From contig NZ_CP011530.1 in assembly GCF_001605725.1 (NCBI RefSeq), positions 248,001-312,000 of the forward strand: a DNA stretch of 64,000 bases, in the 5' to 3' direction. Below the pieces are notes generated by a model. It worked only from the letters and a program-made list of their open reading frames with translations. It had not been told where the DNA came from and ran no database searches. Of the stretch, positions 30,451 through 57,163 are shown in pieces. Both the position numbers and the translations under genes were made by a program. How positions within the stretch are numbered: position 1 is the first letter of the stretch; the number at the start of each line of letters is the position of its first letter. This DNA comes from Mycobacteroides immunogenum (GTDB lineage: Bacteria; Actinomycetota; Actinomycetes; Mycobacteriales; Mycobacteriaceae).

Positions 30451-30526
30451 GCGCCCGTAGCTCAACGGATAGAGCATCTGACTACGGATCAGAAGGTTAG
30501 GGGTTCGAATCCCTTCGGGCGCACCA
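30451..30526 (+). tRNA. tRNA-Arg (anticodon ACG), integration target
   Basis: A 76-base tRNA including an encoded CCA: acceptor GCGCCCG pairs with CGGGCGC, discriminator A; anticodon stem TCTGA/TCAGA holds CTACGGA (anticodon ACG); T-loop GTTCGAATC. Its 3' part from 30490 is the element's attachment core, so the gene is kept intact by the integrated element. Only a 3' fragment is left at the other junction (57129). Confidence 0.95.
30490..30524 (+). repeat. attL core, 35 bp
   Basis: Identical over 35 bases to 57129-57163. It covers the anticodon-stem 3' side, variable loop, T arm and acceptor 3' strand of tRNA-Arg. Bases just outside differ (T at 30489 against A at 57128; C at 30525 against T at 57164), which sets the limits of the core. 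Confidence 0.93.
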
Positions 30527-30546: not shown

Positions 30547-31794
30547 TTAGTTCTCGCCCACCACTCTCAAATTCGGCTTGGATGGGCGCTTATTGGGCGC
30601 AAATGGATTGAAGGCGTCCAGGGCGGCGGTGTTGTCCGGGGCGGAAATAGCGCGGTCGATGTAGTGCTTGCGGGTGATGTCCGGTGAGGAATGACCGAGC
30701 TGGGCGGCGGCGGCTTCGGCCCCGAACTCACGCTCGATGGCCGTGCCAGCCGTCTTGCGGAAGGTGCGTGGTGTGACCCAGGAGTAGTCGTCGCCTCTGA
30801 TCTCGCGCCAGCTCCGGTTGACGTTGTTCTTCCACCGCGCGGTGCCATTGCGACTCGGGAACACCAACTCGAACGGCAGACCCCGCCCGCGCTGGGCGAG
30901 GAGTGCCTGCCGCCCGTATTCGGGGAGGAGCAGGCGGCGGTAGCCGTGTTCGGACTTCGGTAGCGGTTGGCGTTGGCCCTTCTTATCGATAGTTCCTGCG
31001 ATGGTCACCGCTACTGGTTGCGTCTCGTCGTCCAGGTGTTCGATGTCGGCCCACTGGACGGCCAGAATCTCCCCGGTGCGCTCGCCGGTCGCCATGAGCA
31101 GGGCGACGATCTCCACCATGTCCACGCCGCGCTGCGGCCCGCCCTTGCCGGGTTTGCGTGCCTGCCATGACTGGGTGCGTGTCATCAGCTCCCGCACGTC
31201 TTCCGGAGTGAGCGTGCGCTTGTCGGACGGCGAACGTGGCGGCGTCTCCGTCTCGCGAACTGGGTTGTACTCCATGAGCCCCCAACGGACGCCGAGAGCA
31301 CAGGACTGCATCAGCACTGTCCGCACGTGCCGCTTGCGAGCAACGACCCCGGACAAATACCCGTCTGCGCGTTGGGTGCTCATCTCACGAAGACGAACAG
31401 CACCAATACCGGGGATGAGCACCTTCCGCGCCACGTCTATGTAAGTGTCCACGGTGTCGTCAGCGAGACTTCCTGCGCGTGTGTCCGTGACGCTGCGCCG
31501 TTTCGGCTCCAGGGTCTCCAGCCACTTCGCCACAAGGGCACTCAGCGGGGACTCGACGGTCAGCTCGTCGGCGGTACCAGCGCGCTTGCGGTTGAGAATC
31601 TTCTCCCGAAGTGCCGCTTTGGCTTTCGCCTCCGTCGCGCCATTGGCACGGACTTTTCGGGTCGTCCCGTCTTTGTCTCGGAACCGAGTTTCGGCTTGGT
31701 ACACACCGGAACGGAGGGGCATCGTGTAGATGTCTCCGTGACTTCCTATGGGCAATGGTGGACGCCCGGCCACTATTTCTTCCTCCACGTCCAT
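30547..31794 (-). CDS. int: Tyrosine recombinase (integrase)
   Basis: Site-specific integrase of 415 residues that should catalyse insertion at tRNA-Arg. It has an N-terminal arm-binding region (about 20-75), a SAM-like core-binding domain (about 82-180) and the catalytic domain (about 195-385). Catalytic residues visible are Arg239 (ATGERTGEIL), Arg346 (TPRTFRKTAGT; the usual His of HxxR is Arg343, a substitution I believe occurs in other actinobacterial integrases), His368 (QLGHSS) and nucleophile Tyr378 (RKHYIDR). It ends 23 bp from attL, the classic position. The ATG at 31794 overlaps the end of the repressor gene, suggesting co-expression. Confidence 0.93.
   Translation of the reverse strand: MDVEEEIVAGRPPLPIGSHGDIYTMPLRSGVYQAETRFRDKDGTTRKVRANGATEAKAKAALREKILNRKRAGTADELTVESPLSALVAKWLETLEPKRRSVTDTRAGSLADDTVDTYIDVARKVLIPGIGAVRLREMSTQRADGYLSGVVARKRHVRTVLMQSCALGVRWGLMEYNPVRETETPPRSPSDKRTLTPEDVRELMTRTQSWQARKPGKGGPQRGVDMVEIVALLMATGERTGEILAVQWADIEHLDDETQPVAVTIAGTIDKKGQRQPLPKSEHGYRRLLLPEYGRQALLAQRGRGLPFELVFPSRNGTARWKNNVNRSWREIRGDDYSWVTPRTFRKTAGTAIEREFGAEAAAAQLGHSSPDITRKHYIDRAISAPDNTAALDAFNPFAPNKRPSKPNLRVVGEN
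30583..30605 (+). repeat. Candidate integrase arm-type site, left end
   Basis: A 23-bp stretch holding two TGGGCGC units 11 bp apart, followed by AAATG. The same stretch with one mismatch lies at 56993-57015 near attR, in the same orientation. Here it falls inside the 3' end of the integrase gene. Confidence 0.55.
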
Positions 31795-35565: not shown

Positions 35566-35575
35566 CATCGGCCAG

Positions 35576-36574: not shown

Positions 36575-37314
36575 TGCGGAACTTCGTCGAGTCCGTTTTC
36601 GCGCAGAGTCGCTGTCACGGACTCCACGACGCGCGTGGCGGGCCAGTCGTCCGGGGCGGAAATCAGCGTGCCACCCGCCAGCTCGGTGGCGGTCAAAGTG
36701 TCCACGAGGTGCGTCACCGTGCCCACCTCGGCGCTGATCCACGTGCGATACCCAACACCGATTTTCCAGTTGCCACGACGTGCTAGCTGCCGCACGGGGT
36801 CATCCGAGAACACCGCTGTCGCGGGTTCCCACGAACGAATCACCGCCGCGCAGAGGTCATCGCACATCTCGGTAGTGAGAAGTGCTGGTGCAATGTCCCG
36901 TAGCCGTATCCAGAGAGTGTGCATGGGCAGACGGGATCCAAGTGCCTTGGAGCCCGCTGAGACTCGCACGTCCAGTTGTATGCCTTGCCCAACACCCGAG
37001 ATGATGAACGAGTAGCCGCTTTCGGGTATTGCTTCACCGTCAGGATCGTCGGCGGTGGGACGGTCGCGCACGATAAAACGACGCACGATGTCAGCGAGCG
37101 TCTCGGGTGAGCCTTCCCAGCTGTCACCTTTGTAGGTCTGCCACGAATTGACTCCGAAGACGTGGCTAAGAGCGTTTAGCAGCGCATCTGTGCGAGCAGC
37201 AATCCATTCCGGAGACTCGCTCGTAGCGAGCCAGACTGAATGCAGCGAGGGGCTGTCAGACCAAGCCGTACGAACCTCAGAACTCACGCTCATATCTCCA
37301 ACCGTAGTCATCAT
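36571..37314 (-). CDS. Immunity protein, Imm52-like
   Basis: A 247-residue soluble protein encoded directly after the toxin gene (4-bp overlap). Layout and motifs (VGQGIQLDVRVSAG, GNWKIGVGYRTWISAEVG) are consistent with Imm52-type immunity proteins, which accompany Tox-REase-5 toxins. Its role would be to neutralise the nuclease domain in the producing cell. The family assignment is by recollection of the partner rule and gross features, so moderate. It is convergent with the Dam-like gene, overlapping by 4 bp. Confidence 0.6.
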   Translation of the reverse strand: MMTTVGDMSVSSEVRTAWSDSPSLHSVWLATSESPEWIAARTDALLNALSHVFGVNSWQTYKGDSWEGSPETLADIVRRFIVRDRPTADDPDGEAIPESGYSFIISGVGQGIQLDVRVSAGSKALGSRLPMHTLWIRLRDIAPALLTTEMCDDLCAAVIRSWEPATAVFSDDPVRQLARRGNWKIGVGYRTWISAEVGTVTHLVDTLTATELAGGTLISAPDDWPATRVVESVTATLRENGLDEVPH

Positions 37315-39774: not shown

Positions 39775-40506
39775 GTGAAAACTGGTCAGATGGACCTTCC
39801 CGAGACCTCTGGTGGCTTCCGGTGTGTGGTGGCTGATCCTCCGTGGCATTTCGATTACACGAAATCGCGTGGTGCCGCCGAGAACCATTACAGCACAATG
39901 ACTGTGGAGCAGTTGTGTGAGCTTTCGGTGGTTCGGGATAGCGCTGCCCGCGACGCACATCTGTATCTGTGGTCCACCAATGCGCACCTGCGGGAAGCGT
40001 TCGAGGTGATGGAAGCATGGGGCTTTGAGTACAAAACGCTGCTCACGTGGGTGAAACCGCAAATGGGCCTGGGTCATTATGTGCGCAACGCCACCGAAGC
40101 AGCGCTCTTCGGTGTACGTGGCTCCCTGCCGACGCTGAGTCGCAGTGTGCGCGGGCATTTCACGGCCCCGCGACGTGCCCACTCGCAGAAGCCGCCTGAA
40201 TTCCTTGATCTTGTGCAGCGCCTGTCTCCCGGGCCGTACCTGGAGGTGTTCTCGCGATGCCTGAAAACGAAGGGCCTGCAGGAATGCACTTGCTCGAAAT
40301 GTCGGCTCGGATGGGATGTCTGGGGTAACCAATCAGGGGTGTTTTGTGACGAGTTTTCCAATGGTTTCGTGACGGGTTTTGGAGTGCTCTGCGGGCGCTG
40401 TGGGAAGAGTGTTCCCAAGCCGCGCAGAGGACCGGTCGGTACCTGGTGCAGCCCCGCCTGCCGAACAGCGGCATGGCGGGAACGCCAGATGGCCGAGGGG
40501 CACTGA
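39775..40506 (+). CDS. MT-A70-type adenine methyltransferase with zinc-ribbon tail
   Basis: A 243-residue MT-A70-family protein. DPPW (residues 21-24) is the catalytic motif, followed by YSTMTVEQLCEL and the late PYLEVFSR...GWDVWGN blocks of the family. Between the last two blocks is a Cys-rich insert (CTCSKC). The C-terminus adds CGRC and WCSPACRTAAWRERQ, the same ribbon as in the Dam-like protein at 35576. It should methylate adenine in DNA. It is divergent from the toxin cassette. Start GTG 39775; an ATG at 39790 is possible. Confidence 0.82.
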   Translation: MKTGQMDLPETSGGFRCVVADPPWHFDYTKSRGAAENHYSTMTVEQLCELSVVRDSAARDAHLYLWSTNAHLREAFEVMEAWGFEYKTLLTWVKPQMGLGHYVRNATEAALFGVRGSLPTLSRSVRGHFTAPRRAHSQKPPEFLDLVQRLSPGPYLEVFSRCLKTKGLQECTCSKCRLGWDVWGNQSGVFCDEFSNGFVTGFGVLCGRCGKSVPKPRRGPVGTWCSPACRTAAWRERQMAEGH

Positions 40507-43836: not shown

Positions 43837-44511
43837 ATGTTCGACTCTTCAAGCGTAACAGTTGAATCGGCGGGAATCAGCCCCTTGGCGACGCTCGCGT
43901 TCGCGCCCCGCCCAGAGCTGCGCAGCCTTGCCCTGGAGCTGCCGGTACTGCCAATGGCACTCGCCCCGGAGTCGCGAACAAGCTGGGGACGTTTGGCTTT
44001 CGACATCCTCGCGGATGTCCATGAGTGGCTTCGCCCACTGCACCAACTCATCCAGACTTCCGGGACGCTCGAACCCATCACCGGGTACCTGGATGAGCAC
44101 CCACGCACGGGTCGTTCGTCCCGGCAACTCGCTGCTGACATCCAGCGCGTCATTGGCTCCATCGACCCTGCTGACCCGTACTTGCGCGAGACCCTGACCA
44201 CTCTGGTTCAGGATGCGTGGAGCGCTGCGGTGGACCGTTTCGAGAGCGACCACCTTCCTGCTTTCCGCCCGCCGGACGCCGAGCAGCAGCTCACGGATTT
44301 GGCTGCGGCTATCGCCCAAATCCGCGTGATGGCGTTGAGCTTGCGCGCCGACGAGCATCGCGGCTTCGCCGACGCCCTCTCGGCCATGCTGACCGAAATC
44401 GGCTTCCCGGTAGGGCAGCGCGACCTCGTGCTGGAGTCCGTCGCTTCGGGTGAGCCGATCGACTTGACACCGCTTTCGACCCCACCCGCCGACATCGAGA
44501 GTGAGGACTGA
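43837..44511 (+). CDS. Hypothetical protein upstream of the primase-helicase
   Basis: A 224-residue acidic, mostly helical protein with no recognised domain (FDILADVHEWLRPLHQLI, EQQLTDLAAAIAQIRVMAL). AAAAGGAG precedes the ATG. Its TGA overlaps the primase-helicase ATG, so the two are translationally coupled and it probably has an accessory role in replication. Confidence 0.6.
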   Translation: MFDSSSVTVESAGISPLATLAFAPRPELRSLALELPVLPMALAPESRTSWGRLAFDILADVHEWLRPLHQLIQTSGTLEPITGYLDEHPRTGRSSRQLAADIQRVIGSIDPADPYLRETLTTLVQDAWSAAVDRFESDHLPAFRPPDAEQQLTDLAAAIAQIRVMALSLRADEHRGFADALSAMLTEIGFPVGQRDLVLESVASGEPIDLTPLSTPPADIESED

Positions 44512-46964
44512 TGAACGAGACCATCGAGCTTCCCGGCCAGCCGTTGACCGCAGCGCACCGTGAGTACCTGCACAGCGCTGGGCTCACCGATGAGTATCTC
44601 GACCGCGAGGACACCCTCATCCGCAGCGTCACCGAACAGCTTGACCTCGACATGATGCCTCGGCAGCCGTTCGCGTACGTCACCGACTTCGAGGAGGTCT
44701 CCGCGCGTGGAATCCTGTTCGGTTGGCGTGACCTCCAGGGCACGGTGCGCTGGCAGCTCCGCTTGGACGACCCAGGGGAGCTGCCGAAATACCTTGCGGA
44801 AAAGGGTTGGGCACCCACCTACGGTGTGCGCGCTGACGCCGGGGATGACTCACCAGTCATCATCGTGGAGGGCACCAAGCAGTCCCATGCCACCGCGTGT
44901 GCGGTAGGCGAAACTCACACGGTCATCGGTGTTCCGGGGTGCACCGCCTGGTCCACGGGCGGATGGGTGATCGCCCCCGAGCTGCGCAGGCTGGTCACGC
45001 GCCGCGAGGTCTACATCCTGTTGGACGCGGACGCCAATGAGAATCGGCTGGTCTACGACGCCGGCGTGTGGCTCAAGAAATCTCTTGGGCCACTCGCCAA
45101 GACGCGGTTCTTGCTGTGCCCAGGTGGGGCCAAGGAGGGAATTGATGATTATCTGGCGACTCTCGATGTCGAGGATCGTGCGGATGCCATCGAGGCCCTG
45201 ATTTCGGAGTCTGCGGCCAAGCCCGCGACACGTCGCCCGGACAAGCAGAAGCACGTTCCGGACGCACAGGACGTTGCACGCCGCCGCGCTGCCATCGCTG
45301 AGAAGGCGTGTGACGGTCTGGACTTGGACAACTTGGATGTGGACGAAAACACTGGGCTGCCCAAGATTCAGGGTGAGCCGCTGGACGGGTCGGTGTGGTT
45401 CGATGCCGTGTCCGGGCAGTTCCAGCCCGAGACGCTCGCCCGATACATTCTGGGCTCTACGACCCCGGTGGCGCTGGCGGCGGGCGATGAGCTGCTCGCC
45501 GTGTACGGCAACGGCTATTACCACACCGAGCGGCTGGCATTCGATTCCGTCGTCGGTCGCTACTTGGGTGACCGATTGACCCAGACTCACGTGGCGAATG
45601 TGAGGTTGCAAGCCATCCGCTTGTGCCAGGAGCTGAATCGTCGGCTGCCGGACAGGACTCCGTACAAGGGATTCGTGAACCTCCGAGACGGCATGCTCGA
45701 CCTGTCCACGTTGACGCTGCATCCACATTCCCCGAAGTACATGTCGTTGCGTCAGCTCCCTGTCCGGTGGAACCCGGACGCAACGTGCCTCCGCTACGAA
45801 CAGTGGCTGACCGACCGGGTGGGCGATTTCCAGGTCGGTGTTATCGAGGAGTCCATTTCTCAGTTCCTCGACGAGGGCCGCACCCCGAGCAAGGCGCTGT
45901 TCGTGTTCGGGCCGAACCGTACTGGTAAGTCCACCGTTCTCCGCATCGCCAAGGAGATGGTCGGCGGTGACACGAAGGTGAGTGGAGTGAGCCTGCAACA
46001 GCTCTCCGGTGAGGGATTCGCCGCCGCCGAGGTGTTCGGGAAGCCGATCAACATATGCCCTGACATGCCATCCGACTATGTGCAAGACCTGTCCGTGTTC
46101 AAGCGTGTGACTGGCGATGACACGATCACCGCGTCGAAAAAGTACGGCGTGATGATGACTTTTCGGGCCAACTCTCTGTTCTTGATGAGTGGCAACAACT
46201 TGCCGACGGTCGCGGCCTCGGAGGGCACAAGCTACCTGAGTCGTGTAGTGCCAGCGGCTTTCCTCAAGTCCTACCTTGGCTTTGAGAATCCGAACGTCGA
46301 GGACGAATTGCTTACTGAGCTTCCGGGGATTCTTGTCCGCTGGGCACGCGCTCGGCAGGCGCACATCGCACGGGAATTCAAGTGGCTCCCAGTGCACCCG
46401 TCCATCACGACGCACTTCGCCGCCGAGTCCGACAGGGTGGCGCGATTCATCTCGTCCTGCTGCGTCGTCGGCGTCAAGACAGCCACCAAGGCAGCCAAGG
46501 AAGCCGCCACGGGAACCGACGCCGCAGCCCGACGCTTCGGCCCGACCGTCGTGAACATCTCGATGCCGACGTGGCCGAGTTTTCCAGTCGCCGCCACGAA
46601 GACAAATCTTTTCGATGCATTCCAGACTTGGACTACGGACGAACAAGGAAAGGGCATGAGTAAGTCGCTGTTCTTCAAGCGGCTGGAGCAGATTCCCGGT
46701 GCGCGGCTCGACCGCAAGGACGCCGGAGGCAAGGACGTAACGAACATTGCCGTTCGTCCGCAGTCGGAATGGTCGAGTGGCGACAGCGCGGCGTCTCTGC
46801 GTGAAATCTTGTTCCCCGGATGGACGCCACCGGGAACCGAGCCTGCAGAGCCCTTGACGGGCGCGGTGGCCGAGACCGCCACCGGGAACGTGAGGCCGTT
46901 GGCCGACGCGCGACGGAAGTACGTCGGCAAGACCGCGACGACGAACAAGTATTGGAGGAGCTGA
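44511..46964 (+). CDS. TOPRIM primase-SF3 helicase (P4/D5 type)
   Basis: An 817-residue replication protein. The N-terminal part has a TOPRIM-like domain (VIIVEGTKQS near 116-125, ILLDADAN near 170-177). The D5-type linker (YKGFVNLRDGMLDL) leads to an SF3 helicase with Walker A FGPNRTGKST (about 466-475), Walker B-like PINICPDMP and sensor LFLMSGNNLP. The C-terminus is polar. Such proteins prime and unwind plasmid or satellite-phage DNA at an origin. It probably replicates the excised circle. The last bases overlap no gene; the next starts 2 bp later. Confidence 0.87.
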   Translation: MNETIELPGQPLTAAHREYLHSAGLTDEYLDREDTLIRSVTEQLDLDMMPRQPFAYVTDFEEVSARGILFGWRDLQGTVRWQLRLDDPGELPKYLAEKGWAPTYGVRADAGDDSPVIIVEGTKQSHATACAVGETHTVIGVPGCTAWSTGGWVIAPELRRLVTRREVYILLDADANENRLVYDAGVWLKKSLGPLAKTRFLLCPGGAKEGIDDYLATLDVEDRADAIEALISESAAKPATRRPDKQKHVPDAQDVARRRAAIAEKACDGLDLDNLDVDENTGLPKIQGEPLDGSVWFDAVSGQFQPETLARYILGSTTPVALAAGDELLAVYGNGYYHTERLAFDSVVGRYLGDRLTQTHVANVRLQAIRLCQELNRRLPDRTPYKGFVNLRDGMLDLSTLTLHPHSPKYMSLRQLPVRWNPDATCLRYEQWLTDRVGDFQVGVIEESISQFLDEGRTPSKALFVFGPNRTGKSTVLRIAKEMVGGDTKVSGVSLQQLSGEGFAAAEVFGKPINICPDMPSDYVQDLSVFKRVTGDDTITASKKYGVMMTFRANSLFLMSGNNLPTVAASEGTSYLSRVVPAAFLKSYLGFENPNVEDELLTELPGILVRWARARQAHIAREFKWLPVHPSITTHFAAESDRVARFISSCCVVGVKTATKAAKEAATGTDAAARRFGPTVVNISMPTWPSFPVAATKTNLFDAFQTWTTDEQGKGMSKSLFFKRLEQIPGARLDRKDAGGKDVTNIAVRPQSEWSSGDSAASLREILFPGWTPPGTEPAEPLTGAVAETATGNVRPLADARRKYVGKTATTNKYWRS

Positions 46965-48152: not shown

Positions 48153-48768
48153 CCCCTTCTACCCGCCCGCTCGAACCCTCGGAACCCCCGATTCCGTAAG
48201 GCCGCGCGTAAGAAGGGGCGTAAGACGAGCTGGAAGATGGCCCGTAAGACGGGCCGTAAGATTTCTCGGACCCTTGATTCTCGGCACGAGTGTGTCTCTA
48301 TATGCCCTGCTAGGGAACCCCTTTTCCACACATTCGAGTCCCACCCGCACGCCCGCTCCCGAGCCCTCTTGGAAGCCCGCCCGTAAGCACCCCTGACCGC
48401 CCAATCCTGAAGCCCCATAACGGGACTCGGCGGCTCGCATCCCCGTGCCGTAAGCCGCACTCCATCTCCAGTCCCCGCCGAGCCTCCCCGACGACGACAG
48501 GCTCCGCCCGCCGCCGCCGACTCGCGGCAACACTCTGGTCACCGAGAACCCCCGCTGACCTGGACTTTTCCGTCGGATTTACTCCCACCCTCATTGCCAT
48601 CTAGGGTATCTGACCTGCGGAAACACCACATTCTTGCGCCCTCTCGTGTCACCCGTCATCCCTGAAACCCCAGCTCACGGGCACTTTATGTACCGATAGC
48701 AAACGGTGGTGTTAATGTCAGAGTAACGGAACAAGCTGGTGGACACCGGAATAAGTGAAACATTGGGT
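48153..48768. other. Non-coding region upstream of the transfer operon
   Basis: About 620 bp without a gene I can support. It holds the 12-bp repeat array (48195-48266), two further isolated CGTAAG copies (48382, 48449), an inverted copy of TTTCCGCAGGTCA at 48611-48623, and an AT-rich last 150 bp leading into a promoter at 48769. Confidence 0.5.
48195..48266 (+). repeat. Six tandem 12-bp units, consensus CGTAAGACGGGC
   Basis: CGTAAG begins at 48195, 48207, 48219, 48243 and 48255, with a degenerate unit (TGGAAG) at 48231, an exact 12-bp period. The array starts 43 bp after the SpdB-like gene and about 0.9 kb before the FtsK/TraB-like gene. TraB translocases of Streptomyces plasmids recognise short direct repeats (the clt locus), so this is a candidate loading site. 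Confidence 0.7.
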
Positions 48769-48798
48769 TGACAGGGCAAAGTTTCTGGAGTTAGAATT
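48769..48798 (+). promoter_or_regulatory. Strong promoter of the transfer operon
   Basis: TTGACA (48769-48774), 18-bp spacer, TAGAAT (48793-48798). A perfect -35 and near-perfect -10 are unusual in mycobacteria and suggest either high expression or a promoter held by a repressor. Confidence 0.65.
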
Positions 48799-48876: not shown

Positions 48877-49209
48877 GTGGGCAAGTGGATTTTGGTTGGG
48901 CTGCTGGGTCTTTCGGGGCTGTCGCTCCTTTCCGAGTACCCCCTGTGGGGTGCGGTCATGCTCGCCGCCGCTGGGCTCATCGCCTTCTTCTCCGTTCGGA
49001 GTTCGGGTGGTTCCCGTTCGTACTCGATGCCCACCCGCCCCGGACAGCTCTCGGCGGCACGCTATGACTCCCGCGAGGAAATCTCTAACGCCGAGCGCGA
49101 CGCGGCGCGCATGGTTCGCGCCGCCCAGGAGGGTGCGGAGGAGCAGGGTCAGTCCGCGCTCCGCGCCGCGATGACGTTCTTGAGCCAGGAAACGCGGTGG
49201 CTCGCATGA
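48877..49209 (+). CDS. Small membrane protein, first gene of the transfer operon
   Basis: A 110-residue protein with two adjacent hydrophobic helices (WILVGLLGLSGLSLL; LWGAVMLAAAGLIAFFSV), then a polar, helical cytoplasmic tail (DSREEISNAERDAARMVRAAQ). The start is a GTG at 48877 with only a weak ribosome site. Its end overlaps the translocase ATG. It may anchor or dock the translocase at the membrane; inferred from position. Confidence 0.6.
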   Translation: MGKWILVGLLGLSGLSLLSEYPLWGAVMLAAAGLIAFFSVRSSGGSRSYSMPTRPGQLSAARYDSREEISNAERDAARMVRAAQEGAEEQGQSALRAAMTFLSQETRWLA

Positions 49210-51530
49210 GCGGCTCGAACCGTGCTGCGCGCCGAGCCGCGCTCGCGCGCCAGCAAAGTGCCCGTGACGAATTTATGTGGCGTCAAGACCAGCGCAGGGT
49301 CGAGCAGCAGCACCGTGACCTGTTGCGCGATTCGGACGCCGCCGACAGCGAGCGTGAGCGCACCGCCGAGCGTGTTCGGACGGTCATGGCGCGGGCACAA
49401 GCCGACGCCGAGCGCGCGGCGGGCGAGGTCTCCAAGCGCTACGGCGCGGAAGAGCGCAGGCTGCTCGGTCAGCCCGTAACTCGCTACACCGGGGCGACGC
49501 GCAACCTGGCCGGCGGGCTGGTCGTGTGGCATTGGCGTGCCGCGTGCTCACCGTCGTTGGCGGCGCGGCTCGGTGTTCAGCGCTTGGATGCTGGCCCGCT
49601 CGCGGTGCTGCGCCCTGGTGGTGGGATCACTGAAACCGATTCGGCTCCTGATGTCTTTGCTTCGCTGGATGCCTCCCTACTCGATGACCCCGAGTTCCTG
49701 TCGTGGGCGGGAACAGTGGCTGAGCTGTGGCACGGGGACGTGACCGCCAGGTACGGAATTCTCGGCAAGTTGAGGGATGACGACTGGTTCGCGAGGTTGG
49801 CCGAGTCTGCGGGGATCGCTGACTCGCAAGCGAGCACGGAGAGCTTGCAAGGTCGGTACGGAGCGGTCGAACGGAAAGTCATGACGACCTACGTTCCCTC
49901 TATTTCTGGCGTCGAAGTGACCCAGGACGGGTTGGAAATCGAGTTTGCGCACAGCCCCAAGGCTTCTGCGAAGTCTTGGTCTTCACACCTCGACCTTCTC
50001 CGAAACGGTTTCGCCGCAGTAGGCATGGACTCCATCCATTTACGTCTGACCGACCGCGACGGTCGTGTTCGGATGATGTTCGATGACGCGCCGTCATCGT
50101 TTCCCGCAGCGGTCTGCATTGAGCCTCCGTCCACCGTGGCGTCGAGTAACGCCGATGCCATTCGTCGGTACGAGGGCGCGGCGTGGACTTTGGGTGTGGA
50201 TGCGCGTGGCAAGACGATCAAGTTCCCTGTCGAAGACTTCCCTCATGTGCTTGTGGTCGGTGGCACGGGCGCGGGCAAGAGTGTCTGGGCGCGCAGCATC
50301 ATCGAGATGTTCCGCACGGGGTACCGCGACCCGAACACCGGCAAGGACACGGCGGGCGGGTTCACGTGCTACGTCTCGTCGGGCAAGGTCACGGACTTCG
50401 TGACCCTTTCCCGCCTTCCCGGGGTGGCGATGGTCGCGGGTGATGCCGCCCAGACCGCCGTGATGGTGCGGGCGGTCAAGGACGAGGCCGTGCGCCGTTA
50501 CGACGAAGCCGCCGCCGCCAAACTGCGCGGTGAAACACGAGCTTTCGACTATCCGCCCATTGTCTTGTTTCTTGATGAGTGGGGCGCGACCTGGCTGGCT
50601 CTGTCGAGCATGTACAAGTCCACCAGCGACTTCGAGACGGACATCGACTGGATTCTCCGAGTGGGCCGCGAAGCCCGTGTGCACGTGGTGCTGCTATCCC
50701 AGACGATCAGGAAGACGGGCGCGGGAGCGGTGCCAGGTAGTTGGCAGGCGAACCTCGGATTGACCATCAGCCTGGGTAAGCCCGAAGCCGAGACCTACAA
50801 CAATCCCGCCGTTTTTCCTGGTGGTTCGCGCGAGCGTGCCGAGTTGGTGGGCAACAGGATCGCTGGGAAGCGCGGGCGCGGCATGGCAGTGCTCGAAGGC
50901 ACCGTGACTGAGTTCCAGAGTTATTACGTGTGGTCTCCGGGGACGACTTCTCTTGCGCCCGACGCGGATAAGAAGGTCGCCCCGCCCACCCCCGAAGTCC
51001 GAGCACTGTGGGAACGCTGGGAGCCCGTCTCGGCGTCCGTTCCGTGGCTTTCCCCGCGACTCGGACTGCGTGTGGACGGACCCGATTGGGCTGGAACACC
51101 TGGGGAGAAGACCGACCTCAAGGAGATTCTCGCCACCCCCATCGTGGCGCTGACCGACCGCGCCGGGAACGTGAAACGGGGCATGGAGCGCTTCGACCCG
51201 TGGAGCCCAGAGTGGGCAGGGAAGCGCGAGAACAGCTCGCGCCGCACGGCGCTGTCGTTCGATGACGAGGGCGATTCAGGGCAGAACGTGGGTTCGGCGC
51301 ACGACGCCAAAAGCCGTGTCACGCCCCCAACTCGCGCTCCCGCCGACATCACCACCATGTCCGACGACGAGCGCCGTGCGGCTGTCCGGCAAGAGGCGAT
51401 TCGACTCGGATTGTTGCCCGATGCCGAGTCGGTCGAGACCGACGAGCAGGTCGAGGAAACGGAAATGGTCGAGGAGACCGAGACCGACGAGAAGCCGAAG
51501 CGACCGTCAACAGGAGGAATTTCCCTATGA
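49206..51530 (+). CDS. FtsK/SpoIIIE-type DNA translocase (TraB-like)
   Basis: A 774-residue motor ATPase. The N-terminal third is coiled/helical (RRVEQQHRDLLRDSDAADSERER), followed by the RecA-like motor: Walker A VGGTGAGKS near 350-358 and Walker B VLFLDEWGA near 452-460. The C-terminal 120 residues are acidic and repetitive (ETDEQVEETEMVEETETDEK). In AICEs one FtsK-like protein moves double-stranded DNA between cells. The start ATG at 49206 overlaps the preceding stop; a GTG at 49197 is alternative. It is the key transfer protein of the element. Confidence 0.87.
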   Translation: MSGSNRAARRAALARQQSARDEFMWRQDQRRVEQQHRDLLRDSDAADSERERTAERVRTVMARAQADAERAAGEVSKRYGAEERRLLGQPVTRYTGATRNLAGGLVVWHWRAACSPSLAARLGVQRLDAGPLAVLRPGGGITETDSAPDVFASLDASLLDDPEFLSWAGTVAELWHGDVTARYGILGKLRDDDWFARLAESAGIADSQASTESLQGRYGAVERKVMTTYVPSISGVEVTQDGLEIEFAHSPKASAKSWSSHLDLLRNGFAAVGMDSIHLRLTDRDGRVRMMFDDAPSSFPAAVCIEPPSTVASSNADAIRRYEGAAWTLGVDARGKTIKFPVEDFPHVLVVGGTGAGKSVWARSIIEMFRTGYRDPNTGKDTAGGFTCYVSSGKVTDFVTLSRLPGVAMVAGDAAQTAVMVRAVKDEAVRRYDEAAAAKLRGETRAFDYPPIVLFLDEWGATWLALSSMYKSTSDFETDIDWILRVGREARVHVVLLSQTIRKTGAGAVPGSWQANLGLTISLGKPEAETYNNPAVFPGGSRERAELVGNRIAGKRGRGMAVLEGTVTEFQSYYVWSPGTTSLAPDADKKVAPPTPEVRALWERWEPVSASVPWLSPRLGLRVDGPDWAGTPGEKTDLKEILATPIVALTDRAGNVKRGMERFDPWSPEWAGKRENSSRRTALSFDDEGDSGQNVGSAHDAKSRVTPPTRAPADITTMSDDERRAAVRQEAIRLGLLPDAESVETDEQVEETEMVEETETDEKPKRPSTGGISL

Positions 51531-52168
51531 CCCGATACGTGATTGCACTCGACCCAGTGACGAGTGGTTGCTCTATCGCCTTGATCGTCGAGGGCGAGCC
51601 GACTCCCGCCGTCATGTGGCTTCCCGCGCCCTCGGCGAACAGTAACCGTAGCGTCGCGGCCACTGTCCACCGCACCGTAAAGACTGCGGAGGGCGTGCTG
51701 GATTCAGTGTTGAGGGGTGGTCTCCCCACCCTGGTGGTGATGATGAAACCGCTCTGCGGCACCATCCACGAAGACCCGTCCGGCCCGCGCAGAATGATGC
51801 TTTCGGGCGAGATCATGAGACGCCTCGTGGACACCGACGTGCGAGTGGCCGAGGTGCCGCCGATGACTTTGAACAAGTGGATTCTCGGAGATTTCCAGGC
51901 GGGGAAGAAGGGGCAAGAGGCGGTCGAGCGCGCCGTGCGAGACCTATTCCCTGGCATCGACGCCGAAGGTCTGAACGACAAATTCCGTTGGTCAACAGTG
52001 GGTCTCGCCGCCGCCGGGTGCCTGGCTGCGGGCATCGAGACGCGGCTCGACGTGACGGATGCTCGGCTCAAGAACCTGCGTCCGATGGTTCTCCCGTCCA
52101 CGTGGACACTGCCCGTCTCAGCTGCCGAGTGGCACCAGAAGCACTCTCTTCAGGAGGTATCAGCATGA
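51527..52168 (+). CDS. RNase H-fold protein, RuvC-like but degenerate
   Basis: A 213-residue protein. The start RYVIALDPVTSGCSIALI resembles the first strand of RuvC-type resolvases with its Asp, but later acidic catalytic positions are not evident (PTLVVMMKPLCG where an acidic residue is expected; TVGLAAAGCLAAG where Asp-Ala is usual). It may bind DNA branch structures without cutting, or the resemblance may be only of fold. It overlaps the translocase gene by 4 bp and is presumably involved in processing transferred DNA. Confidence 0.4.
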   Translation: MTRYVIALDPVTSGCSIALIVEGEPTPAVMWLPAPSANSNRSVAATVHRTVKTAEGVLDSVLRGGLPTLVVMMKPLCGTIHEDPSGPRRMMLSGEIMRRLVDTDVRVAEVPPMTLNKWILGDFQAGKKGQEAVERAVRDLFPGIDAEGLNDKFRWSTVGLAAAGCLAAGIETRLDVTDARLKNLRPMVLPSTWTLPVSAAEWHQKHSLQEVSA

Positions 52169-52737
52169 TGACTATCAAAAGGTTTGGCGCGACGGTCGGT
52201 GTCGCCGCAGTTCTGGTCGCCATCCCACTGGGGATACTCGGAACCGAGCAGTCCACGGGGTCGAGCGTCGCTGTGGCGCAAGCCGAACCCACGACGTATT
52301 ACCCAGGCGACCCTGGCTACGACGTGATTCAGGACTGGGAGCAGGACTTGCCGAGCTACACACCGCCGGCGACTGCCACGCACACCGTGACCGTCACACC
52401 GACAACCACGACCAAGCCCAGTCCCGCGACCAAGAACGAGGGAGGCGGAATCCCGTGGTGGGTTTGGATTCTCGGAACTCTTGGAGCCATCGGTGGATTG
52501 CTTTGGTGGGGCACGACACTCGACGACGGCAGCAGCGCCCGCGCAGCACTGCGCACTGCCGACGACGATGACGATGACGACTGGGATGACGACGAGGACG
52601 ACGCGCCTTCGCTGACTTATCCCGCGATCACGACAACTCCTGTTTCCGAGCCCATTCCGTATCCCGAGCCGACTCCGAGCGTTCCCGTGCAGCCCGCCCC
52701 GAGCACGAGCTTGATGGACAGGCTCGGCGGGAAGTAG
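52165..52737 (+). CDS. Membrane-anchored protein with poly-Asp stretch
   Basis: A 190-residue protein: an N-terminal signal-like helix (about 8-28), a Thr-rich outside segment (ATHTVTVTPTTTTKPS), one transmembrane helix (IPWWVWILGTLGAIGGLLWWG), then an intracellular tail with a run of acidic residues (DDDDDDDWDDDEDD) and a Pro-rich end. AGGAGG lies about seven bases before the ATG at 52165. A bitopic protein in the transfer operon; it could bind a basic partner or calcium. No family recognised. Confidence 0.6.
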   Translation: MMTIKRFGATVGVAAVLVAIPLGILGTEQSTGSSVAVAQAEPTTYYPGDPGYDVIQDWEQDLPSYTPPATATHTVTVTPTTTTKPSPATKNEGGGIPWWVWILGTLGAIGGLLWWGTTLDDGSSARAALRTADDDDDDDWDDDEDDAPSLTYPAITTTPVSEPIPYPEPTPSVPVQPAPSTSLMDRLGGK

Positions 52738-52793
52738 ACCCGTCAACCCAGACAAATACAACATCTGACCGACCAGTCGAAGAAAGGAAAAAC

Positions 52794-53276
52794 ATGAAGA
52801 AGAACAGGATCCTCGCAGCCGTGGCAGCGAGCGCAGCGGTGGTCGGTCTGGCCGCGTGCGGGCACGCCAGCACGCCCGAGGCTCAGCCCGGGGCGCAGCC
52901 ATTCCCCATTGAGCGGGCTTGTGCGGACATCCCTCGTCCCAGCGACCCCCACAACCTGATCGGGGACAACTGGCTCAAGGACAACGCTTGCGCTGTCTTC
53001 AACATGAACCGTCCGGGTGTGGACGGCGACCAGGCCGCGAAAATCGTTTACGACGCGCGCATGAAAGCCTTCATGGGAAAGCGCGACATCGCTCTTTTGG
53101 TCCGCCAGGGCAACGCGCAGATCAGCACTCCGAGTGGCGTGGAGACCGATTTCAAGGGTGCCATCGCCCAGCGCCGCGCATCGCTCAAGCAGGAGCTGAC
53201 TGACTCTGGTCTGGCTCTCCAGGGCAAGGCCCCCGAGGGATTTCGCATTTCTTACTTGAAGGGTGAGGGACGATGA
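52794..53276 (+). CDS. Lipoprotein 1 of transfer operon
   Basis: A 160-residue lipoprotein: signal MKKNRILAAVAASAAVVG and lipobox LAAC (Cys near 24), then a small extracytoplasmic domain with two further cysteines (ERACADIP, DNACAVF) that may form a disulfide. GAAAGGAAAAAC precedes the ATG. The stop overlaps the next ATG. No known family. Confidence 0.75.
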   Translation: MKKNRILAAVAASAAVVGLAACGHASTPEAQPGAQPFPIERACADIPRPSDPHNLIGDNWLKDNACAVFNMNRPGVDGDQAAKIVYDARMKAFMGKRDIALLVRQGNAQISTPSGVETDFKGAIAQRRASLKQELTDSGLALQGKAPEGFRISYLKGEGR

Positions 53277-53680
53277 AACTCCAGTTGGCTGTGGGAATCA
53301 CGGCTGTTGCTCTGCTCGGTTCCGCGTGCTCCGCGCAGCATGAGCCGCCTGCGCAGAGTCCGAGTCCCAGTAGTCATTCGGCGAGCCCTGGGCTCGCTCC
53401 CCGGGAACACACGCGGTCTGTTCCTGACGATTGCGCCACCGAAGCAGCCAAGGCACCTACGCGGTACGCGGACATGAAAGATGTCGTGCTGGCTGCCATC
53501 CGTGAGGGAGTTCCCGCGCACGTTCCAGGAGCTGCGTACAGCCGCATCCCGACCGACCAGCCCTGGAGCCGCGCGTTCATGGCGCTCTCGACCGAGAACG
53601 TGTGCGTTGTGGATGCCCTCTCGGCGGCATGGGGTGTCGATGTTCGAGGGTGGATTTACACGAAGGAGAGCGGAAAGTGA
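53273..53680 (+). CDS. Lipoprotein 2 of transfer operon
   Basis: A 135-residue lipoprotein: signal KLQLAVGITAVALLGSAC with lipobox LGSAC (Cys near 19), a Ser/Pro linker, and a small globular domain with two cysteines (VPDDCATE, ENVCVVD). Coupled to its neighbours by ATGA-type overlaps. Unknown family. Confidence 0.75.
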   Translation: MKLQLAVGITAVALLGSACSAQHEPPAQSPSPSSHSASPGLAPREHTRSVPDDCATEAAKAPTRYADMKDVVLAAIREGVPAHVPGAAYSRIPTDQPWSRAFMALSTENVCVVDALSAAWGVDVRGWIYTKESGK

Positions 53681-54159
53681 TGAAATCCCTGGCGGTGCTT
53701 GCCCTCACGTTCGGCGTGGGAGCAAGCACCATCGGGTGCTCGGGAGCGAGCACCCCCACAGCCCCATTGTCGAGCACGATCAGCACCTCGGCGGCTCACG
53801 AGATGGTGGACGTGAGCGCTGTGTGGCAGACCGAGCCGCTGCCTGACTGCCCGAAGCCCCCAATTGTTTTCAACGGCTCTGTCCCGCCTGGGCTCTCACT
53901 GCCCGACAAGGCGAGCGTCGCTCGGCAGCTTGCGGGTGTGAAGAGCCCCGCGAGCGAGGAATGGGTGCGGACGAAACTCGGCTGGGTGACTCAGGAACTC
54001 GCCGCGACGCGCGCCGACCTCATCTCCGACCCTGGTGTTGGTGCCAAGGAGCAGTCGGAGATGTTTGTGGAGTGGGTAACTCACGTTCGTGAGGAGCTGC
54101 GCGACGGGCACGACATCGCGTCGGACCTGGATGGAGCTTTCCCGGAAGGTTGTGCGTAA
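53680..54159 (+). CDS. Lipoprotein 3 of transfer operon
   Basis: A 159-residue lipoprotein: signal KSLAVLALTFGVGASTIGC with the lipobox Cys near 20, a Thr/Ser linker, and a helical domain with cysteines in LPDCPKPP and FPEGCA. The ATG at 53680 shares bases with the preceding TGA (TGATG). The run of three lipoproteins of similar size, each with a Cys pair after the lipid Cys, suggests paralogy or a joint envelope complex. Confidence 0.75.
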   Translation: MKSLAVLALTFGVGASTIGCSGASTPTAPLSSTISTSAAHEMVDVSAVWQTEPLPDCPKPPIVFNGSVPPGLSLPDKASVARQLAGVKSPASEEWVRTKLGWVTQELAATRADLISDPGVGAKEQSEMFVEWVTHVREELRDGHDIASDLDGAFPEGCA

Positions 54160-56123
54160 TGCCTCCCATGCCTGATGTTCAGAAACCGCAGGATGACCCG
54201 TACGATCTTCTCCAGCAGAGCTGGCCCCCCGAGAGCGAGTCTGCTTACCGCACAGCGGAGGTGGACGCTGATGCGCTCTCGACCACTGCGGGTGCTCAAG
54301 CTGAATCGGCTGGTGAGGCTTCTCGTCAAACCGAAACGGGAATGCAGGGGCAGACAGCGGATTCCGTTTCCGGTGCCTACGCACACCTTGCAACACAACT
54401 GCTCGGTCAGAGCCGCGACTGGACGGCAATCAGCGGTTGGATGACCGATGCCGCTAGTGAGATTCGGAAAGCGAAGAAACGGATAGTATCCCTCGTGTTG
54501 GTGGGAACATCCGAAATCCGCGACGCCTTGGACTCTGAACTCCAAGGTACTCCCGCAACTCCGTCATCGAGTGACCTCATCGACAAGTATCGTGGCGACA
54601 TCGGTACTGCCGCAAGCAATCTCGGCGTAGACCTCGACAGTATCGGTCATTCCCTTCACGGCGACCCAGGCTCTTCCCACACGCCGACTTATGTCCGCGC
54701 GGCTTCGACGCCGATGACGCCCACCGTCGAGCAGGCAGCGGTTCATCAGGGCATCACGGGTGACCAGCCCCAGGTCGCCCCTCACCAGCTCCCCGAGATG
54801 CCCCGCGCCACGACCACTCATCCCACCGAATCGGTAAGTGCCACAAGTATTCCAAGCACACCGACGCACAGCGTGAACCCCACGCTCGCCAATCTCATCG
54901 GCGGTCAGGGGAGCACCCCCACGGGCACCCCGACCACCAGTGCCCCGCACACCTCCTCCCCGAACACGACCACGCCGAGCTCGCAAGCACACCAGCCCAC
55001 CGAGCAGCACCAGCCCCCGAGACCCGCTGGTCTTCCGCGCATCCCATCCATCCCACTCGATGGGCTCCCCGCTGCCGCCGCCGAGTCGGTCGCCACCGCC
55101 GTGTCCAGTGCCGCCGCCCACCAACTCCCCACGGCTCCGAGCACGATCACACCGAGCGTTCCCGTGAGCACGGGGCTCACGCCAGGTGTCAGCGGCACCA
55201 CTGCACCCGTGACTCCCGTGGCTCCAGGGCTCAGTCCAATCGGCGGAGGGGGTCTCGGCACGCCCACTGCCACGCAGCCCGTAACACCCGCACCCCAGGG
55301 GACACCAGCCCCATCGCCCGCTGCCCCTCAGCAGACCGCCCCACCTCGTAGCCCCGCCGCCGACCTCGGGTGGATTCAACGGACGTACGGCTTGTCTCCT
55401 GGCGTGGAAGTCCCGAAGCCCGAGACCCCCGTTATGTCAGCACTATTCATCGCTGACCTGCCCGAGTCCGAGGCGCACCTGCATCGCGTGCTCGCCACGC
55501 TGCGCCAGGAGTTCGAGTCGTCGGGCTGGTCCCAACCCCTCGCCGTGGCGACCATTCGGCGGGGCTTCGAGACCAAGCTGGTGTACGTCACCTCGGATGG
55601 GGTATCCATTCACCCCTCGGGCGTCTCCCTGCCCGATGCGGTGACCCCGCTATCCGATATGCCAGGTGCGCCAACCCATCCCGACCTGTCGGGCTCTCTC
55701 ATGGTCTCGGAGAAACTCAAAGCTCGCATCCCACGAGCTTGGGATGTAGAGGCTCTGTTGAGCACCGTTCCCGCCGACGAGAACAGCCAGTCGGTCGAGC
55801 AGTTCCAGGAGTTGGTCGAGTCGGAAGAGCTGTTGCCCTGCAAGGTGTTTCGCGGTCGTGGTGACGTGGAGGCGGATGAGGCTCTGCGGATGTTCGCACG
55901 GGCAGCGATTGGCTCGGCGGGATGCTCTGACCTCGATGTGGAGAGCGCTCGGCTCCGTGCTGGCAGGTGGGTCGGTGTCCAGCCCTCGGGGTACGGGGAG
56001 GTGTTGAGCCGTTGGTATCTCGCGGATGCCGCCGAGGCTATGAGCGAGGGACGCTGGGGAGAAGCCGTGTACGCCAGCGAGAAGTACCTGTCCATTTCGG
56101 ACATGAAAAGGCAAGCAGCATAG
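54159..56123 (+). CDS. Large Thr/Pro-rich protein, type VII substrate-like
   Basis: A 654-residue protein. Residues about 1-130 are helical and WXG100/EspE-like (SWPPESESAYRTAE at the start). A long Thr/Pro/Ser-rich region follows (about 170-420). The C-terminal 230 residues form a folded domain (LVYVTSDGVSIHPSGVSLPDAV, then RWYLADAAEAMSEGRWGEAVYASEKYL) that resembles the DUF5632/DUF5631 pair of mycobacterial proteins linked to ESX loci; this is a resemblance, not a proven match. The ATG overlaps the preceding TAA. It may be exported through a host ESX system or act at the cell surface during transfer. Confidence 0.55.
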   Translation: MPPMPDVQKPQDDPYDLLQQSWPPESESAYRTAEVDADALSTTAGAQAESAGEASRQTETGMQGQTADSVSGAYAHLATQLLGQSRDWTAISGWMTDAASEIRKAKKRIVSLVLVGTSEIRDALDSELQGTPATPSSSDLIDKYRGDIGTAASNLGVDLDSIGHSLHGDPGSSHTPTYVRAASTPMTPTVEQAAVHQGITGDQPQVAPHQLPEMPRATTTHPTESVSATSIPSTPTHSVNPTLANLIGGQGSTPTGTPTTSAPHTSSPNTTTPSSQAHQPTEQHQPPRPAGLPRIPSIPLDGLPAAAAESVATAVSSAAAHQLPTAPSTITPSVPVSTGLTPGVSGTTAPVTPVAPGLSPIGGGGLGTPTATQPVTPAPQGTPAPSPAAPQQTAPPRSPAADLGWIQRTYGLSPGVEVPKPETPVMSALFIADLPESEAHLHRVLATLRQEFESSGWSQPLAVATIRRGFETKLVYVTSDGVSIHPSGVSLPDAVTPLSDMPGAPTHPDLSGSLMVSEKLKARIPRAWDVEALLSTVPADENSQSVEQFQELVESEELLPCKVFRGRGDVEADEALRMFARAAIGSAGCSDLDVESARLRAGRWVGVQPSGYGEVLSRWYLADAAEAMSEGRWGEAVYASEKYLSISDMKRQAA

Positions 56124-56131
56124 GAGGAATG

Positions 56132-56383
56132 ATGTATGCACCGAAGCAGAGTGCGGCTATCCAGGCGGCGTACGCCCGCGCGGCGGAACGTCGCGTGGCT
56201 ATCGACGCCGATTTCATGTGCATCGAGGCGATGGATTGGGTTAACCGTCCCACAGCGCACGTGGAGTTCCTGGAGGCGATGGACGAGCATCGCCGAATGC
56301 GGGATGCGTCCAGCGCGCTGCTCGATTTCGAGCTGGACCTCGCCCTCGGCATGTACGACAACCTGCTGAGCGGGCGTCAATGA
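56132..56383 (+). CDS. Small hypothetical protein, 83 residues
   Basis: Helical protein (MYAPKQSAAIQAAYARAAERR to LGMYDNLLSGRQ) with AGGAGG just upstream. It overlaps the next ORF by 4 bp (ATGA). No domain recognised; the size and helical pattern are compatible with a small type VII-associated protein, but no WXG motif is present. Confidence 0.6.
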   Translation: MYAPKQSAAIQAAYARAAERRVAIDADFMCIEAMDWVNRPTAHVEFLEAMDEHRRMRDASSALLDFELDLALGMYDNLLSGRQ

Positions 56384-56523
56384 GAGCCCAGGAAGCGCTC
56401 GGACTGCGCGCCGCCGAGCTGGTCGAACAGTCCCGCACCAAGAGTGCCCTGGCTGTCGAAGCCCTGCGAGACCAGTGGCTTCGGGTGCCCAATCAAACAC
56501 ATGTCATGGAAGGAAAGAAGTGA
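56380..56523 (+). CDS. Very small hypothetical protein, 47 residues
   Basis: A single predicted helix (AQEALGLRAAELVEQSRTKSALAVEALRD) encoded between two coupled ORFs: its ATG overlaps the preceding TGA, and its TGA overlaps the following ATG. This tight arrangement supports translation. Function unknown. Confidence 0.5.
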   Translation: MRAQEALGLRAAELVEQSRTKSALAVEALRDQWLRVPNQTHVMEGKK

Positions 56524-56843
56524 TGTCATCAACAATCGCAACGACGGGCGACCCCATCATCCAAGTCCACAGGGGCGTCGCGCAGTCGGCGCGGGAGGCG
56601 GCTGCGGGGCTGCCCGTCGTGAACTCGGCAGGCATGCGGACGGGTCATGCGGAGCTGCTGGAGAACGCGCTGGGGGAGACACGGAAAGTGCTGACGGAGC
56701 TGGCTCGGGTGGCTGACATCGGTGCTCGGGGTGCGGGAGCGCTCGCAGATCAGGACTGTGAGAACGCCGAGCGATTCGAGGGCTGGGAGTCGGGGGAGTT
56801 GCAGCGCAGGGGAGTGCCGACAGGCGAGGTGCGGGTGATTTAG
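56523..56843 (+). CDS. EspC/WXG100-like protein, last gene of transfer operon
   Basis: A 106-residue helical-hairpin protein (NSAGMRTGHAELLENALGETRKVLTELARVADIGARGAGAL), the length and pattern of type VII secretion targets. GGAAAGAAG precedes the ATG at 56523. It could pair with the 654-residue protein encoded upstream. A strong terminator follows at 56864, closing the operon. Confidence 0.55.
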   Translation: MSSTIATTGDPIIQVHRGVAQSAREAAAGLPVVNSAGMRTGHAELLENALGETRKVLTELARVADIGARGAGALADQDCENAERFEGWESGELQRRGVPTGEVRVI

Positions 56844-56863: not shown

Positions 56864-56893
56864 CCCCCGACCGTCAGCGGTCGGGGGTTTCTT
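56864..56893 (+). terminator. Intrinsic terminator of the transfer operon
   Basis: CCCCCGACCG (56864-56873), loop TCAG, CGGTCGGGGG (56878-56887), then TTTCTT. A 10-bp GC stem, 21 bp after the last gene. Confidence 0.85.
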
Positions 56894-57128: not shown

Positions 57129-57163
57129 CAGAAGGTTAGGGGTTCGAATCCCTTCGGGCGCAC
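57129..57163 (+). repeat. attR core, 35 bp
   Basis: Perfect copy of 30490-30524. It is the displaced 3' fragment of the chromosomal tRNA-Arg gene; the base after the core is T, so the original chromosomal gene probably did not encode CCA. Confidence 0.93.

What the first reader, a model, noticed from the sequence alone, without database searches (positions are those of the whole stretch)
48877..56843. Transfer operon that adds lipoproteins and ESX-substrate-like proteins to an FtsK-type motor
Downstream of the translocase, and tightly coupled, are a bitopic acidic protein, three lipoproteins with Cys pairs, a 654-residue Thr/Pro-rich protein with WXG/EspE-like start, and an EspC-like protein, all under one strong promoter and one terminator. 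Streptomyces AICEs do not need such envelope parts. This may be a mycobacterial adaptation that couples TraB-type double-stranded DNA transfer to the mycomembrane and to type VII secretion.
Basis: inference. Interest (0 to 1): 0.8.

Follow-up and report, generated by a model that had tools for sequence, protein, structure and literature searches.

The report
Mycobacterial mobile elements with envelope-spanning DNA pump
A family of integrated mobile DNA elements in the Mycobacterium abscessus group, six of them in this one genome, couples an FtsK-like DNA motor to a RuvC-like protein, a conserved lipoprotein and a secreted-type (ESX-like) protein, and may be an unrecognised way in which these bacteria pass DNA to each other.

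The parts
30490..30524 (+). attL, 35-bp repeat in the 3' part of tRNA-Arg(acg) (30451-30526)
   Evidence: empty site in two relatives
57129..57163 (+). attR, identical 35-bp repeat
30547..31794 (-). tyrosine integrase
   Evidence: Pfam PF00589 35 bits against cut-off 27.1; phrog_1 E 2e-36
44511..46964 (+). replication primase-helicase, P4/D5 type
   Evidence: TIGR01613 119 bits over cut-off 108.7; D5_N, DUF5906; found in 8 of the 9 copies with enough upstream DNA, not in L012
47232..48152 (+). DUF2637-type membrane protein with C-terminal helix-turn-helix-like segment
   Evidence: homologues L009 and L012 pass the DUF2637 cut-off (32.4 and 33.8 against 22.8); the window copy itself has no Pfam match at E 0.01 but phrog_2342 E 7e-20; alignment
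48195..48454 (+). 12-bp-phased CGTAAG array plus two outlying sites (+127, +67): candidate cis site (clt or origin)
48768..48797 (+). promoter-like site TTGACA-18-TAGAAT
   Evidence: first hexamer kept in 9 of 10 copies, one base off in the tenth
48877..49209 (+). small membrane protein, likely anchor of the motor (which has no hydrophobic segment of its own)
   Evidence: present in 12 of 12 copies; hydropathy
49197..51530 (+). FtsK/SpoIIIE-type motor with family-specific ~300-aa N-terminal domain
   Evidence: PF01580 25.2 against 24 bits; PDB profile hits 4nh0 (cell division FtsK/SpoIIIE), 6o1w (DNA translocase coupling protein), 2iuu FtsK, 7np7 EccC5
51527..52168 (+). RuvC-fold protein, probably not a canonical nuclease
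52165..52737 (+). signal peptide-like start, extracytoplasmic stretch, second apolar segment, acidic tail
   Evidence: homologues in 6 of 12 copies, other small membrane proteins in the slot in some others
52794..53276 (+). lipoprotein LP1 (variable, 7 of 12 copies)
53273..53680 (+). lipoprotein LP2 (variable, 3 of 12 copies, one of them weak)
53680..54159 (+). lipoprotein LP3, invariant lipobox Cys and Cys pair
   Evidence: 12 of 12 copies; 10 of 10 aligned
54159..56123 (+). 654-aa protein: WXG100_2-like start, Thr/Pro-rich linker, conserved C-terminal part
   Evidence: 223 homologues at E <= 0.001
56132..56383 (+). 83-aa protein of the operon tail
   Evidence: 6 of 12 copies
56380..56523 (+). 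47-aa protein of the operon tail
   Evidence: 6 of 12 copies
56523..56843 (+).
   Evidence: 11 of 12 copies, the twelfth contig ends first; no Pfam match
56864..56887 (+). terminator-like hairpin

Best explanation
An integrative element that excises from tRNA-Arg, replicates with its own primase-helicase, and moves as double-stranded DNA from cell to cell through an FtsK/TraB-like motor without a relaxase. Shown by sequence: integration, the conserved operon, the array, the RuvC fold. Inferred: the phased CGTAAG array is where DNA is loaded (by the motor's shared N-terminal domain or by the membrane-bound DUF2637 protein with its helix-turn-helix-like end); the 48877 membrane protein anchors the motor; the RuvC-fold protein, which seems to have lost most catalytic acids, clamps or guides DNA rather than cutting it; the lipoproteins and the WXG-like protein form or regulate the outer part of the path, or mark cells for compatibility or exclusion, the WXG-like and 106-aa proteins perhaps leaving through the host's ESX systems.
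For: Element borders and empty site. Six copies in one genome; other copies lie, at the operon end, within about 1 kb of different tRNA genes: Leu, Ser(cga), Ser(gga), His, Pro (none was found in the fetched stretches of L010 and L011). Conserved operon. Motor profile matches FtsK, EccC and a DNA translocase coupling protein; the second motor type matches NCBIfam plasmid TraB (E 1.2e-8, 34 bits, far below its cut-off of 800). DUF2637 membrane protein beside the array. Array: 20 of 20 phased pairs in the genome lie in the elements, reversed-pattern control 2; the triple is in 3 of 396 genomes, all three with the WXG-like gene. In L025 two adjoining blocks from the second half of the DUF2637 gene through array and motor to the WXG-like gene are 92% and 97% identical in DNA to L008, whereas its Rep is 45% identical to L008's, so there the array travels with the transfer operon. 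A second lineage has an EspB-like protein and a lipoprotein in the same slot.
Against: No transfer was observed; nothing here measures DNA movement. Pfam shows no winged-helix domain at the motor's C-terminus, the part that reads the repeats in Streptomyces TraB (PMC3583192 passages), and both motor types share one array motif. Short direct repeats next to rep genes are equally typical of origins. Four of seven distant loci seem to lack envelope genes, and five of seven lack a clear array, with a sixth (L091) no more than a hint. ESX dependence is a guess from weak domain matches.
Confidence: 0.55

Rival explanations
1. The CGTAAG array is the element's replication origin bound by the P4-type Rep, and the motor serves segregation or multimer handling of the excised circle, not transfer between cells.
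For: The array lies about 1.2 kb downstream of rep; iterons next to rep genes are known in actinomycete plasmids (PMC3583192 passages); motor is FtsK-like.
Against: Does not explain a lipoprotein and an ESX-substrate-like protein in one operon with the motor in every copy; L012 keeps the array although this Rep family was not found in its 6.4 kb upstream; in L025 the array goes with the operon, not with rep.
Confidence: 0.2
2. The operon is a secretion or cell-surface module: an EccC-like ATPase works with host ESX systems to export the WXG-like protein, with lipoproteins as surface partners, for competition or kin recognition.
For: Motor profile's best solved match is 4nh0 (deposited as cell division FtsK/SpoIIIE; I recall it as an EccC), and entries named EccC and EccC5 also match; WXG100_2-like and EspB-like domains; a toxin-immunity-like pair sits in the same element; six co-resident WXG-like copies are all 58-67% identical, with the N-terminal 110 residues the most variable part over 84 sequences, as expected of recognition proteins.
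Against: EccC proteins carry several ATPase domains and work with EccB, D and E (recalled); the genome's two EccB genes are elsewhere; the RuvC-fold partner and the array point to DNA.
Confidence: 0.15
3. A phage satellite or decayed prophage whose envelope genes change the host surface.
For: tRNA integration, repressor-like HTH, primase; one copy lies in an IMG/VR contig; M. abscessus carries many prophages and candidate PICIs (PMC10654092 passages).
Against: No capsid, tail or portal family among 30 ORFs of the element scanned against PHROGs (the single packaging hit, E 0.012 to a terminase, is the motor's ATPase part); 44 of 50,697 phage records match the motor weakly and none over 80% of its length.
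Confidence: 0.08

Closest known systems
AICEs (pSAM2 type) and Streptomyces TraB plasmids
   Same: Integrase, tRNA site, own replication gene, FtsK-type Tra, direct-repeat cis locus, no relaxase among the ORFs scanned; DUF2637 membrane proteins also occur in such plasmids (recalled)
   Different: P4/D5-type Rep instead of RepSA/RepAM/Prim-Pol; motor without own membrane segment or recognisable winged helix; RuvC-fold partner; lipoproteins and WXG-like protein. The main text of PMC3218068 has 0 occurrences of lipoprotein
Mycobacterial ESX-P/T4SS conjugative plasmids (pRAW type)
   Same: Conjugation combined with ESX proteins in mycobacteria (PMC4756508, PMC8190616 passages)
   Different: Those carry relaxase, VirB4/TcpC and an ESX locus; none showed up in the Pfam scans here
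M. abscessus prophages and PICIs with ESX-secreted toxin (PEST) systems
   Same: tRNA sites, tyrosine integrase, polymorphic toxin-immunity-like cassette
   Different: No virion genes found; FtsK has 0 occurrences in each of the three papers searched
RuvC resolvases and the RuvC-fold protein TEFM
   Different: Only one acid of the recalled RuvC tetrad (Asp9) is kept; Lys74 and Arg154 sit where acids are expected from the sequence pattern

Membership tests
[quoted passage not shown]
   PF00589 over cut-off
[quoted passage not shown]
   Window motor 25.2 against 24 bits; the other motor type in L012 stays below (10.6 bits)
[quoted passage not shown]
   Pfam at E 0.01 lists D5_N, DUF5906, DUF3854 only; NCBIfam P4-family primase
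[quoted passage not shown]
   Phased direct repeats found; binding not testable
[quoted passage not shown]
   needs a mating experiment
Streptomyces TraB | N-terminal membrane segments in the motor | tested here: not met
   Hydropathy scan: none in 12 of 12 motors; separate small membrane protein upstream in 12 of 12
Streptomyces TraB | C-terminal winged-helix reading 8-bp repeats | tested here: inconclusive
   No Pfam match at the C-terminus; no structure of the motor was made
Streptomyces TraB | NCBIfam plasmid_TraB model | tested here: not met
   L012 motor 34 bits against cut-off 800; window and L009 motors not listed
RuvC nuclease | RuvC fold | tested here: met
RuvC nuclease | four catalytic acids (recalled) | tested here: not met
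   Over 80 sequences Asp9 and Lys74 are nearly invariant and Arg154 invariant; the two latter stand where acids are expected from the sequence pattern, not checked residue by residue in a structural alignment
ESX/WXG100 substrates | WXG100-type helical hairpin domain | tested here: inconclusive
   PF25547 19.8 against 27 bits; 2 of 6 copies
ESX/WXG100 substrates | Export through an ESX system | not testable with these tools
   no experiment; own genome has two EccB genes outside the elements
Phage satellite / prophage | capsid, tail or portal genes | tested here: not met
   none among 30 ORFs against PHROGs; some small ORFs of the left half were not scanned

The most novel reading that the evidence does not exclude
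A distinct, relaxase-less DNA transfer machine of the M. abscessus group, in which an FtsK-type motor, a non-cleaving RuvC-fold clamp and an envelope module with an ESX-exported recognition protein pass double-stranded DNA across two mycobacterial envelopes, also carrying chromosomal DNA, and so cause the genome mosaicism of a species that lacks ESX-1.
Probability: 0.15. Interest if true: 0.92.

Novelty: new variant of a known kind. Interest (0 to 1): 0.65.

Why it matters
M. abscessus shows genome-wide mosaicism but has no ESX-1, which M. smegmatis needs for distributive conjugal transfer; a 2016 study states that the elements involved 'remain unresolved' (PMC4756508, passages). The elements described here have many homologues in database M. 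abscessus, occur six times in one chromosome and carry what may be a self-contained DNA-moving operon that databases call hypothetical proteins and 'cell division protein FtsK'. They give named genes and a defined candidate cis site with which that open question can be tested, and a case in which envelope proteins seem to have been added to a TraB-like motor more than once.

Tried and rejected
Plasmid origin: no match of the 654-aa protein in 72,556 plasmid records. Phage origin: weak motor hits only, in 44 of 50,697 phage records. Defence system: the motor's PADLOC hits are generic ATPase matches (SspH, mads_8, HerA). RNA element in the intergenic region: only the tRNA was found in 30400-57300. 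Hexamer counts against mononucleotide shuffles were too weak by themselves (the highest single shuffle reached 6 to 11), so I used phasing and the whole-genome count. Phasing: 0 of 300 block shuffles reach the 12-bp score in each of 10 copies; in the stricter hexamer test the window and L008 are reached by 0 of 60, but L050 by 11 of 60. Seven distant loci: L093 has GTTACG (reverse complement CGTAAC) at 12 bp, 0 of 60 and 0 of 300; L091 has three phased GTTACG, reached by 24 of 60 shuffles, no more than a hint; the other five show none of note (12-bp scores for L091, L094, L096 and L105 are reached by 4 to 8 of 300 shuffles, but 12 bp is the top period only in L094 and the units there look unrelated to the motif). 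Sequence profiles of the 654-aa and RuvC-like families found no solved relative at a useful E-value. G239 was first counted as an empty site and dropped: its match covers only 38 bases. G266 has a second exact 35-bp copy of the att core on contig C24 with no tRNA gene found near it, not followed up. An LP1 hit in L048 was dropped because it overlaps the WXG-like gene; the broken DUF2637 gene of L011 and the cut WXG-like gene of L048 were dropped before the identity counts. One search scored only 3 candidates per genome and only 7, so absences there are lower bounds. L008 and L024 are nearly identical, and L025 shares most of that operon, so the 12 copies are about 10 independent ones. The distant loci (L091-L096, L105) were read with a crude same-strand ORF survey over 8.5 kb, without a gene finder; in L105 the lipobox was seen by eye (SAAC), the script's pattern did not flag it.
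Full report
What is there. The window lies in a 5.57-Mb single-contig genome. The operon named in the finding is the right end of an integrated element. A 35-bp repeat at 30490-30524 and 57129-57163 duplicates the 3' end of tRNA-Arg(acg). In G266 and G214 tRNA-Arg(acg) is intact and runs straight into sequence homologous to the window's right flank (503 bases at 82% and 363 bases at 67%), so the site is empty there; in G239 the tRNA pair is intact but the match covers only 38 bases and says nothing about the flank. The element (~26.6 kb) holds a tyrosine integrase, a repressor-like HTH gene, a DNA-invertase-type recombinase, two methyltransferases, a toxin and immunity-like pair, a P4/D5-type primase-helicase, a DUF2637-type membrane protein and then the operon.

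Copies. The genome has six full-length copies of the 654-aa gene (60 of 60 candidates scored), each in an element of the same plan. In the protein collection 223 homologues of the 654-aa protein and 195 of the RuvC-like protein reach E 0.001 (only the 8000 best candidates were scored); among the 120 listed for each, those that carry a name are nearly all Mycobacteroides, mostly M. abscessus, named hypothetical or uncharacterised; the motor's relatives are named FtsK, P-loop NTPase or type IV conjugative DNA transfer family protein. In 396 genus genomes the 654-aa family is full length in three and split in a fourth; five further genomes have weak matches.

Conservation of the operon. In twelve copies including the window: membrane protein 48877, motor, RuvC-like gene, LP3 and WXG-like gene 12 of 12 (in L048 the WXG-like gene runs off the contig); the 106-aa gene 11 of 12 (contig end in L048); LP1 7; LP2 3; the bitopic protein by homology 6, with other small membrane proteins in that slot in L010, L011 and L012. 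LP3 keeps its lipobox Cys and a Cys pair in all. The 48877 gene overlaps the motor gene (by 4 to 13 bases) in all twelve; the motor gene overlaps the RuvC-like gene by 4 bases in ten and is 5 bases short of it in L009 and L026. Copies lie near different tRNA genes at the operon end.

Two motor types, one array. The motors share a ~300-aa N-terminal domain; the ATPase part falls into at least two types (22% identical between window and L010, N-terminal part 42%). In spite of this the ~700-bp non-coding stretch before the operon (longer in L050) has the same array in all ten aligned copies: CGTAAG units at 12-bp steps, then single sites 127 and 67 bp on in most, all on the operon's strand; some units are degenerate. 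The phasing score was reached by 0 of 300 shuffles in each of the ten; a stricter exact-hexamer test was run on three of them and is not significant for L050 (11 of 60). All 20 phased pairs in the whole genome lie in the six elements, against 2 for the reversed pattern; the triple occurs in 3 of 396 genomes, three of the four with the 654-aa gene. This is inference. Published clt loci and origins both consist of short direct repeats (PMC3583192, passages; PMC4170104, passages), so the array's role stays open. L025 favours linkage with the operon: from the second half of the DUF2637 gene to the WXG-like gene it is 92-97% identical in DNA to L008, its Rep only 45% in protein.

Beyond the group. 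RuvC-like homologues at E 0.001 occur in 25 of 396 genomes. Of 16 further loci fetched, seven have the motor directly before the RuvC-like gene (L091-L096, L105), with a DUF2637 homologue in four of the seven by the same test, one of them weak; the other nine have no motor beside it (L097 has one 8 kb away on the other strand). None of the seven has an LP3 or WXG-like homologue. Three (L091, L092, L105) have, downstream on the same strand, a lipobox protein and a ~400-aa protein that looks helical to the eye; that of L092 matches Pfam EspB_PPE (E 7e-5, 23.4 against cut-off 27.7), those of L091 and L105 match nothing. Four (L093-L096) showed no such genes in a crude survey. L093 has its own 12-bp-phased array with another motif. 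So the core is motor and RuvC-like protein, often with a DUF2637 protein, and envelope genes seem to have been added more than once, in one case with an EspB-like member.

How it may work, and how sure. See Best explanation. Shown: anatomy, conservation, array, fold, integration. Inferred: transfer, array as loading site, clamp role, export of the WXG-like protein. The six co-resident 654-aa proteins are 58-67% identical in all 15 pairs, and over 84 family members the first 110 residues are the most variable (median 56%, against 59-69% elsewhere); this fits a recognition or exclusion role, comparable in kind to the polymorphic self-identity protein Msmeg0070 of M. smegmatis (PMC9040860, passages), but no homology was tested.

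Known or not. Papers were seen as passages only. AICE criteria come from PMC3218068; [quoted passage not shown] M. abscessus mobilome papers PMC8092301, PMC9934374 and PMC10654092 do not contain the word FtsK in the main text held, nor does PMC8767326. Eight literature searches were made, five of them on mobile elements of mycobacteria; no listing named this element family. Subscription papers and supplements were not searched.

Noticed in passing
36571-39356 (-): Toxin with C-terminal Tox-REase-5-like domain (just below the Pfam cut-off) and an Imm52-like neighbour; also match PADLOC candidates PDC-M17A and PDC-M17B.
   Followed up: partly
L010:16262-17662: A 466-aa ORF just after the L010 element operon carries a domain 37% identical to residues 84-297 of the motor: the motor's N-terminal domain on its own.
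   Followed up: no
L011, DUF2637 gene (about 12596-13428, -): The gene is split in this copy, with a short stretch also matching on the other strand, so one of the six elements may be damaged.
   Followed up: no
34149-34703 (+): DNA-invertase-type serine recombinase inside the element (phrog_125 E 4.5e-70), besides the tyrosine integrase.
   Followed up: no
35405-36574 and 39775-40506 (+): Two DNA methyltransferase genes in the element (phrog_56 E 4e-47, phrog_359 E 2e-57; MT-A70).
   Followed up: no
L105: A distant motor plus RuvC-like locus lies about 8 kb from the same tRNA-Arg(acg)/tRNA-Ser(gct) pair that hosts the window element.
   Followed up: no
G266:C24:18450-18484 (L079): Second exact copy of the 35-bp att core in M. 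franklinii CV002 without a tRNA gene found near it; perhaps the far end of another element.
   Followed up: no
L012:15478-15837: Extra ORF after the 106-aa gene with an EspC match just over cut-off and a C-terminal GWESGEL motif like that of the window's 106-aa protein.
   Followed up: partly
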